Shown: piece by piece, positions 11,280 through 14,536 of the stretch | Position numbering within the stretch: position 1 is the stretch's first letter | Layout of the letters: every line of letters starts with the position of its first letter | Position numbers and translations under genes: made by a program | Notes under the pieces: model-generated | Databases searched by the model: none | Told to the model about the DNA's origin: nothing | The model's input: the letters and a program-made list of their open reading frames with translations, nothing else | Virus record (IMG/VR): IMGVR_UViG_3300030102_005019 | Coordinates: 1 to 57,469 of that record | Direction: 5' to 3' (one strand) | From: a virus | Length of the DNA stretch: 57,469 bases

Positions 11280-11280
11280 T

Positions 11281-11570
11281 ACAGGACGAGTAGCTTAATT
11301 AGGTAGATTTGAAGCTAACTAAAAAATGTATGTGGTGCTAAACAGCGGGGCCTGATAAATCATTGCTGCAGTGCGTACGGAAGTGTATTACATTTATTAG
11401 TTATTTGATGGATTTCTACACATAAGTGAATTGCCTGATAGGTGGGTAAGAAATAGGAGATTTTGTAAGTCGTTCCCGCAAACCGGTAACAGTAGAAAGG
11501 TCCTGATTACAAATCCTTTTGAATCTAACCGGAAATCGGGGCATAAATCACACTAACTTGCCCACCTTTT
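11281..11570 (+). ncRNA. Gene-free structured RNA candidate, ~290 nt
   Basis: No reading frame is seen, and the sequence is more GC-balanced than its surroundings. Visible pairings: TAGCTT 11291-11296 with AAGCTA 11312-11317; AAATGTA 11324-11330 with TACATTT 11389-11395, enclosing CAGC 11343-11346 with GCTG 11365-11368. Then a long domain is closed by AGGTGGGTAA 11440-11449 pairing with TTGCCCACCT 11558-11567 (one G-T), enclosing TTTGTAA with TTACAAA 11507-11513. The closing arm ends in TTTT (11567-11570), as at a terminator. Two domains plus a terminator-like end suggest a discrete transcript. No known RNA family is recognised. Confidence 0.6.
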
Positions 11571-11582
11571 ATATTAAAAGTT

Positions 11583-13399: not shown

Positions 13400-13777
13400 A
13401 TGAATAAAATTACAACATTAAAAGCTGATGATAACCTGCGTGAAACAACAGGTAGTTACAAAATAGGTTCTTTAGACAATGTACACTTTAAAGATCTAGT
13501 AAACATGTTGGGTGAACCAACGTTATCAGGTGAATCTGGCGACGGTAAAGTTCAGTTTGAATGGGTGCTAGAGCATGACAATAGGCTCTATACAATATAT
13601 GACTGGAAAACATACGACGCAGAGTACACATTAAACGAGTTAACAACCTGGTCTGTAGGTGGTAAAGAATATATAGACAATGATTTTGTAACAGAAATAT
13701 TCAGGTTGTGTGAAGAAAATTGTCCAGAAAACGTAGCTGAAAGTATTATGTTTTATAGTGGATCTGGATTTAAGTAG
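13400..13777 (+). CDS. 125-aa acidic early protein, unknown
   Basis: MNKITTLKADDNLRETTGSY begins an acidic mixed alpha/beta protein with a beta-rich core (VQFEWVLEHDNRLYTIYDWK) and a helical end (FVTEIFRLCEENCPENVAES). It is the largest gene in this part of the early region. It stops exactly where the large structured region begins; the final G of its TAG is the first base of that region's closing stem. No family recognised. Confidence 0.7.
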   Translation: MNKITTLKADDNLRETTGSYKIGSLDNVHFKDLVNMLGEPTLSGESGDGKVQFEWVLEHDNRLYTIYDWKTYDAEYTLNELTTWSVGGKEYIDNDFVTEIFRLCEENCPENVAESIMFYSGSGFK

Positions 13778-13913
13778 GCGGCGGCATACTGGTCACGTTA
13801 GCTTTATACCCGTTAGAAACAATGGTTGAATCCATGACGGTCGTCAAAGCAAAACAGAAAGAGCGGATAAATGATAATACTAGTTAGCTACCAGTCCGCA
13901 ACTGCTGCCTTAT

Positions 13914-14018
13914 TGGCATGATATGGTATTAAAGAGATAACACTAATGATTAGCTGGAACATAAGAAACACGCTGTCGCATAAGAACTCTTACGAAGGTT
14001 CGACTCCTTCCATGTCAA
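13914..14018 (+). other. tRNA-like element (acceptor stem plus T-arm) inside the large RNA
   Basis: TGGCATG 13914-13920 pairs with CATGTCA 14011-14017 over 7 bp (one G-T). The 3' strand is directly preceded by a canonical T-arm: GAAGG, loop TTCGACT, CCTTC (13994-14010), followed by discriminator A. CCA is not encoded. The 73 nt between acceptor and T-arm exceed those of a normal tRNA and fold into no clear D-arm or anticodon arm; only a short TAAG/CTTA arm precedes the T-arm. It is therefore tRNA-like (or a decayed or interrupted tRNA), not a callable tRNA. Confidence 0.6.
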
Positions 14019-14020
14019 CT

Positions 14021-14090
14021 AAGTTATGGCCGAGGATCCATATTAGGTTTTTATTATTTTTATTTTTCATATTTACCTTGGTCATAACTT
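14021..14090. promoter_or_regulatory. 15-bp hairpin with AT-rich loop inside the large RNA
   Basis: AAGTTATGGCCGAGG pairs with CCTTGGTCATAACTT over all 15 positions (two wobbles), starting 2 nt after the tRNA-like element. The 40-nt loop is mostly T on this strand. It may separate RNA domains, act as a processing site or terminate transcription. Confidence 0.6.
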
Positions 14091-14536
14091 TAATATAGCT
14101 GTAGGTGGGGTTGCAAACCCACTGAAGAGTTAGTACCCAACAACGCCTTGCGGGAACAAGGGGTAGGGGGTTGCTCAGTCATCTAGACGACATGCTTATA
14201 AATATAAGTATGATAATCAGAGATATACTGAGAGCGATTAAGATCTATTACAAAGGAACTATATAGATTGTTCCATGATAGGTATGAAGCTGGCTGATAA
14301 TTAAGGAACACCTCACGCTATTGAGGTTAGCCAGACTGTTGTAATCAGATATGATTATTCAATGAGTAGTAATACTTAAGAATAGTGGTTGAACACTGCA
14401 ACAAGCTATCAAGATTAAGCGGGTAAACCGATTAGCTAGGTCTTATGGTGTCTATACGCCGTCTAACTCGCGCTTAATGTAGCCAACGACGGTCACAAGC
14501 CCGTGTAAATACAGAGTGAGCGCAAAATTATAAATT

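What the first reader, a model, noticed from the sequence alone, without database searches (positions are those of the whole stretch)
13777..14530. Large gene-free, multi-domain RNA-like region in a phage early operon
About 750 nt with no plausible reading frame in a genome where genes otherwise overlap, and with at least six self-closed domains, several GC-rich, that I can pair by eye: 8-bp 13777-13784/13902-13909, 15-bp 14021-14035/14076-14090, a multibranch domain 14247-14345 and a further domain 14414-14478. Size, ornate structure, phage location and embedded tRNA-like part match what is known of GOLLD and ROOL RNAs, reported to assemble into multimeric cages. No primary-sequence match to them is claimed; it may be a new class.
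Basis: partly seen in the sequence, partly recalled or inferred. Interest (0 to 1): 0.92.

Follow-up and report, generated by a model that had tools for sequence, protein, structure and literature searches.

The report
Two structured RNAs in a flavophage
The gene-free stretch encodes two conserved phage RNAs: a shortened tmRNA-like molecule that lacks the message part and carries interchangeable hairpins, and a separate ~430-nt folded RNA that ends in a self-cutting ribozyme; it matters because a message-less tmRNA could block or redirect the host's ribosome-rescue system.

Summary
In detail: 13778-14536 is the largest ORF-free gap of the early operon and is strongly structured. It is not one giant RNA. 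(A) 13776-14017: a pseudoknot domain (31 relatives; covariation in P1, pseudoknot P2 and P4) joined to a tRNA-like domain (13914-14017). Relatives' copies match the Rfam tmRNA model (E about 1e-11, below gathering) at both ends while the whole mRNA-like and pseudoknot part is absent, replaced by a 15-111 nt insert. The alanine-identity G3.U70 pair is kept in 51 of 65 copies, including the window. The inserts and the hairpin of the pseudoknot domain share short RNA modules between phages. (B) 14090-14523: a ~430-nt multibranch RNA (8 members in two unrelated phage groups, flavophages and marine crAss-like phages; 36 of 91 pairs with compensatory change) ending in a type-P1 twister ribozyme. A third module cluster lies at 11280-11575. 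No GOLLD, ROOL, OLE or HEARO match. Best reading: A is a tagless tmRNA mimic, probably antagonising SmpB/AlaRS-dependent ribosome rescue (precedent: TLD-only tmRNA of mycobacteriophage DS6A); B is a self-processed RNA of unknown target. Structure and homology are well supported; function is inferred.

The parts
13776..13913 (+). RNA A, 5' pseudoknot domain: P1 13776-13784/13902-13910, pseudoknot P2 ACUGGU 13788-13793 / ACCAGU 13890-13895, P4 13863-13866/13896-13899
   Evidence: 31 distinct homologues; 89.7% of cells paired vs 80.6% shuffled, slid registers 30-52%; compensatory changes in P1, P2 and P4
13802..13851 (+). variable hairpin P3 of the pseudoknot domain (module site 1)
   Evidence: 12-97 nt and unrelated between phages, while flanks are nearly invariant; 7 of 23 longer P3 inserts share a module with a tRNA-like-domain insert in another phage, 0.03 expected from shuffles
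13914..14017 (+). tRNA-like domain (TLD): acceptor 13914-13920/14011-14017 with G3.U70, D-loop-like AUAUGG, T-arm 13994-14010, discriminator A 14018
   Evidence: model R2, built without the window, finds it at 51.8 bits, E 1.4e-11, and nothing else significant in the window; relatives' copies match Rfam tmRNA ends; Rfam tRNA 22.7 bits, below gathering
13921..13993 (+). insert that replaces anticodon arm / mRNA-like domain (module site 2)
   Evidence: 15-111 nt in 65 TLDs; closing helix covaries
14021..14090 (+). 15-bp stem with A/T-rich loop between RNA A and RNA B; probable leader or spacer of RNA B
   Evidence: stem seen directly; a long stem of different sequence stands at the same place before RNA B in L114 and L117
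14090..14523 (+). RNA B: ~430-nt multibranch RNA, closing helix 14127-14133/14463-14469, then a 3' ribozyme
   Evidence: 8 members; 91 pairs, 94% of cells paired, 36 pairs with changes on both sides, 84 double-change cells vs 32 shuffled
14470..14523 (+). type-P1 twister self-cleaving ribozyme at the 3' end of RNA B
   Evidence: RF03160 55.8 bits, E 7.5e-10 in the whole window (gathering 67.2); helices 100% paired with double changes across 8 sequences
11280..11575 (+). third RNA cluster made of modules that lie directly 5' of the pseudoknot domain in relatives
   Evidence: second largest gap; matches in L007, L037, L070, L076, L137; fold z -2.5; no Rfam match

Best explanation
Shown: the stretch encodes, on the operon strand, two independent conserved structured RNAs. 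RNA A is a pseudoknot domain fused to the tRNA-like domain of a tmRNA whose mRNA-like domain and pseudoknots have been replaced by a short swappable hairpin. RNA B is a large covarying RNA with a 3' twister ribozyme. Inferred: both are co-transcribed in the early operon. The TLD is excised by RNase P and RNase Z, receives CCA, is alanylated through G3.U70 and binds SmpB and EF-Tu. Having no tag message it acts as a tmRNA mimic that titrates SmpB/AlaRS or jams stalled ribosomes, and so inhibits or diverts host trans-translation during infection, while the modules add phage-specific binding parts. RNA B cuts itself from the mRNA at the twister, giving a defined 3' end, and acts as a stable free RNA whose target is unknown.
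For: tmRNA model matched at both termini with ~326 consensus positions absent. G3.U70 in 51 of 65 TLDs although pair 4:69 takes all four Watson-Crick forms; a review states that G-U at this position is completely conserved in tmRNA and directs AlaRS (PMC3985003). Precedent: mycobacteriophage DS6A carries little more than a tmRNA TLD, and a similar molecule strongly inhibits tmRNA, perhaps by titrating SmpB (PMC4131195 citing Mao et al. 2009). Covariation of A, TLD and B. Twister. RNA B in unrelated crAss-like phages.
Against: No transcript, aminoacylation, SmpB-binding or cleavage data. tmRNA scores (33-38 bits) and twister scores (42-56) are below the Rfam gathering scores (47, 67.2). The window TLD itself was reported by Rfam as a weak tRNA rather than tmRNA. 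14 of 65 TLD-like elements lack G3.U70. In some relatives a genuine tRNA-Met stands in the place of the TLD (L047), which suits a processing role as well as a decoy role. RNA B homologues fall into few independent lineages.
Confidence: 0.45

Rival explanations
1. The TLD is only a processing and stability device: a natural tRNA scaffold or tRNA-type punctuation that frees and protects the pseudoknot domain and its cargo modules, with no role in ribosome rescue.
For: A genuine tRNA-Met replaces the TLD at the same position in L047 and follows it in L075 and others; genes start soon after many TLDs; cargo modules are swapped between sites.
Against: Punctuation alone does not explain retention of G3.U70 with free variation at 4:69, nor the resemblance to the tmRNA D-loop rather than a full tRNA.
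Confidence: 0.3
2. The TLD RNAs help the phage rescue ribosomes without tagging: Ala-TLD accepts the nascent chain and releases it or adds a single alanine.
For: Jakobid mitochondrial tmRNAs also lack tag sequence and pseudoknots (PMC3985003), so tagless forms persist in nature.
Against: No release mechanism known; nothing in the sequence points to one.
Confidence: 0.1
3. One reading: one GOLLD/ROOL-like ornate RNA that forms a cage.
For: Size, phage location, tRNA-like part; RNA B alone is ornate.
Against: No Rfam GOLLD/ROOL match at E<=10; A and B occur separately in other phages; no data on multimers.
Confidence: 0.05
4. Cis-acting leaders: the structures regulate the downstream genes, with the twister and TLD trimming the mRNA.
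For: Close spacing to downstream starts in many relatives; intergenic twisters are found in many phage contigs.
Against: Downstream genes differ between phages; no conserved overlap with a ribosome binding site was seen.
Confidence: 0.1

Closest known systems
tmRNA (SsrA), Rfam RF00023
   Same: 5' GGGNGUGA..UGG and 3' T-arm plus acceptor match the model ends; G3.U70; no D-stem; a helix in place of the anticodon arm
   Different: no tag ORF, no PK1-PK4; insert of 15-111 nt in place of the ~326 consensus positions; scores below gathering; extra 5' pseudoknot domain
TLD-only tmRNA of mycobacteriophage DS6A (PMC4131195)
   Same: phage-borne tmRNA consisting of little more than the TLD
   Different: here in many flavophages, joined to a pseudoknot domain, and carrying interchangeable modules; sequence not compared directly
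jakobid mitochondrial tmRNA without mRNA-like region (cited in PMC3985003)
   Same: TLD kept, tag region and pseudoknots lost
   Different: organellar; no modular inserts reported in the text read
twister-P1 ribozyme, RF03160
   Same: full-length model match at 14471-14522, core CGGUCACAAGCCCG, covarying helices
   Different: it is the 3' end of a large conserved RNA; score under the gathering value, with the model's internal hairpin missing
GOLLD and ROOL RNAs
   Same: large ornate phage RNAs near tRNA or tRNA-like genes
   Different: no sequence or structure match; a 3' ribozyme; no evidence of multimers

Membership tests
tmRNA | acceptor with G3.U70 and tmRNA-type T-arm and D-loop | tested here: met
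   51 of 65 TLDs incl. the window; alignment to both model ends
tmRNA | resume codon and tag reading frame | tested here: not met
   inserts 15-111 nt, unrelated between phages; 326 consensus positions unmatched
tmRNA | pseudoknots PK1-PK4 inside the RNA | tested here: not met
   absent from the insert; the only pseudoknot found lies 5' of the TLD
tmRNA | Rfam gathering score | tested here: not met
   33.4-37.7 bits vs 47
tmRNA | alanylation, SmpB and EF-Tu binding | not testable with these tools
   needs biochemistry
twister-P1 ribozyme | conserved core and P1, P2, P4 helices | tested here: met
   full model 1-68 aligned; helices 14-17 fully paired with double changes
twister-P1 ribozyme | Rfam gathering score | tested here: not met
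   55.8 vs 67.2 bits, E 7.5e-10
twister-P1 ribozyme | self-cleavage | not testable with these tools
   needs in vitro assay
GOLLD / ROOL / OLE / HEARO | match to the Rfam covariance model | tested here: not met
   no match up to E 10
GOLLD / ROOL | homo-oligomeric cage | not testable with these tools
   needs cryo-EM
tRNA | four-arm cloverleaf with anticodon | tested here: not met
   ARAGORN none in the window; Rfam tRNA 22.7 bits, gathering 29

The most novel reading that the evidence does not exclude
Flavophages carry a modular RNA system in which tagless, alanylatable tmRNA mimics and a pseudoknot scaffold display a shared, rapidly exchanged repertoire of short RNA modules, delivering them to SmpB, ribosomes or host defences, together with a second, ribozyme-processed large RNA exchanged with crAss-like phages.
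Probability: 0.3. Interest if true: 0.92.

Novelty: new variant of a known kind. Interest (0 to 1): 0.8.

Why it matters
In the literature read here, a tmRNA without its message is noted in one mycobacteriophage and in some mitochondria; a widespread, modular version in marine phages would point to a viral strategy against or through ribosome rescue. The exchange of the same RNA modules between different scaffold sites is an unusual case of RNA parts evolving as interchangeable units. RNA B adds a covarying, ribozyme-ended large RNA family shared by flavophages and marine crAss-like phages and absent from Rfam.

Tried and rejected
Rfam at gathering: nothing in the window. Single GOLLD/ROOL-type RNA: rejected. 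Embedded ordinary tRNA: rejected. A conserved small protein in RNA A (ATGACAATACTAG.. frame): the start is lost in L130 and the frame diverges or ends early in others, so not coding. Cultured phages: blastn of the pseudoknot-domain consensus in INPHARED gave none; the TLD model gave none in elemoA and only what looks like a genuine tRNA in MW202828. Bacterial genomes: one real hit, a probably mis-binned phage contig in an Aliivibrio MAG (L146). The human-gut phage hit MT835475 shares only the twister. First TLD model R1 had the insert helix one base out of register and was replaced by R2. In one search the class 'free' is inflated by contigs fetched twice, so only P3/TLD sharing is counted.

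Full report
Observation. The early operon of this flavophage contig has its largest ORF-free gap at 13778-14536 (759 nt at a 55-aa cut-off) and its second largest at 11280-11582. The gap folds significantly better than shuffled sequence as a whole and over 14090-14523. Terminase and primase relatives are Flavobacterium, Cellulophaga, Tenacibaculum and Maribacter phages, so 'flavophage' is right; the window is one IMG/VR contig.

First clue. Rfam at gathering thresholds finds nothing, but with permissive thresholds a type-P1 twister ribozyme stands at 14471-14522 (E 7.5e-10 in the whole window) and a poor tRNA at 13919-14018. GOLLD, ROOL, OLE and HEARO do not appear up to E 10.

RNA A, pseudoknot domain. 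Relatives fetched through the primase-helicase and by DNA patterns share GGCGGCGGCAUACUGGUCACGUUAG - variable hairpin - AAACAGAAAGAGCGGAUAAAUGACAAUACUAGUUAACUACCAGUCCGCAACUGCUGCC. In 31 distinct sequences P1, a pseudoknot P2 (ACUGGU/ACCAGU, switching to ACAGGU/ACCUGU) and P4 covary: 66 double-change cells vs 23.5 in shuffles, 89.7% paired vs 30-52% in slid registers. Relatedness inflates such counts; P2 rests on one reciprocal exchange seen in 15 sequences.

RNA A, tRNA-like domain. Directly 3' comes a 7-bp acceptor, a short A/U-GG stretch, an insert, a canonical T-arm and the acceptor's other strand. A mechanical census found 65 distinct cases, inserts 15-111 nt. All GGGNGUG acceptors have G3.U70 while pair 4:69 is C-G, A-U, G-C or U-A; G-U occurs at position 3 in 51 of 65, at position 7 in 5, elsewhere never. 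The census did not select for G-U at position 3; alignment A4, used for the model, did. Relatives' TLDs hit Rfam tmRNA at E 1e-9 to 1e-11, covering model ends 1 and 374 with ~326 consensus positions missing. A model built from 22 relatives without the window finds the window TLD at E 1.4e-11 and TLDs at E<1e-4 in 30 of 44 flavophage loci searched, a set chosen partly for long upstream flanks. The architecture is that of a tmRNA from which the mRNA-like domain has been removed.

Modules. P3 hairpins and TLD inserts differ between close phages, yet the same 23-43 nt modules recur in the other site type in other phages: 7 of 23 P3 inserts vs 0.03 for shuffles. Some also stand alone (L099, L105). 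In several relatives a true tRNA-Met takes or follows the TLD position. The window's cluster at 11280-11575 is made of modules that relatives carry immediately 5' of the pseudoknot domain.

RNA B. 14090-14523 is 91% identical to L114, a related phage where it lies apart from the TLD, and has distant homologues in L117, L149-L152 and L220. The L117 terminase is 42% identical to that of gut crAss-like phages; the contigs of L117, L149-L152 and L220 have no TLD match (several are fragments). Eight sequences support 91 pairs: 94% paired, 36 pairs with compensatory change, slid registers at most 44%. A helix closes the whole RNA and is followed at once by the twister, whose helices also covary. Twister cleavage in the conserved UUAA would leave RNA B free of the downstream mRNA (established knowledge of the class; not tested here). 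Other phages have different large gene-free regions ending in the same ribozyme, e.g. L124/L116, about 1 kb, fold z -3.8.

Mechanism. G3.U70 is described as completely conserved in tmRNA and as the AlaRS determinant (PMC3985003). The authors of PMC4131195 note that mycobacteriophage DS6A encodes little more than a TLD and that such a molecule strongly inhibits tmRNA, perhaps by titrating SmpB. I therefore favour antagonism or diversion of trans-translation (0.45), with a pure processing/stability scaffold as main rival (0.3). For RNA B only self-processing is supported; its target is unknown and the cage idea is untested.

Limits. No expression data; homologues are metagenomic and partly redundant; covariation tests are not R-scape; Rfam scores lie under curated cut-offs; no cultured phage carrying the system was found, and the literature search covers open-licence papers only.

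Noticed in passing
window 11280-11575: A second gene-free RNA cluster built from modules (GACGAGUAGCUUAAUUAGG.., AAAUAGGAG../CACACUAA) shared with relatives; no Rfam match.
   Followed up: partly
L109 6884-6947 and 7668-7719: A Pistol ribozyme (above gathering) and a twister-P1 flank a small gene and a ~370-nt gene-free structured stretch.
   Followed up: no
L124 3165-4160 (minus), L116: About 1 kb gene-free, strongly folding stretch with a 3' twister-P1, in a 117-kb phage contig (L116) and a near-identical one; unrelated in sequence to RNA B apart from the twister.
   Followed up: partly
L130 4065 (minus), L131 2211, L133 4975 (minus), L142 6219 (minus): Minimal TLDs of 46 nt (acceptor, CUACGGUACUAAAGU or similar, T-arm), some without G3.U70.
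   Followed up: no
L155 10495-10570 (Flavobacterium phage elemoA): Annotated tRNA-Ala has acceptor UCCAAAG/CUUUGGA with C3-G70, not the alanine G3.U70, so the annotation looks doubtful.
   Followed up: no
L146 (Aliivibrio MAG contig JAAGZR010000458.1): Contig carries the flavophage RNA A and is probably a mis-binned phage.
   Followed up: partly
L002 3001-3052 and 3442-3471: Two twister-P1-like sites in tandem between genes of an unannotated gut phage contig.
   Followed up: no
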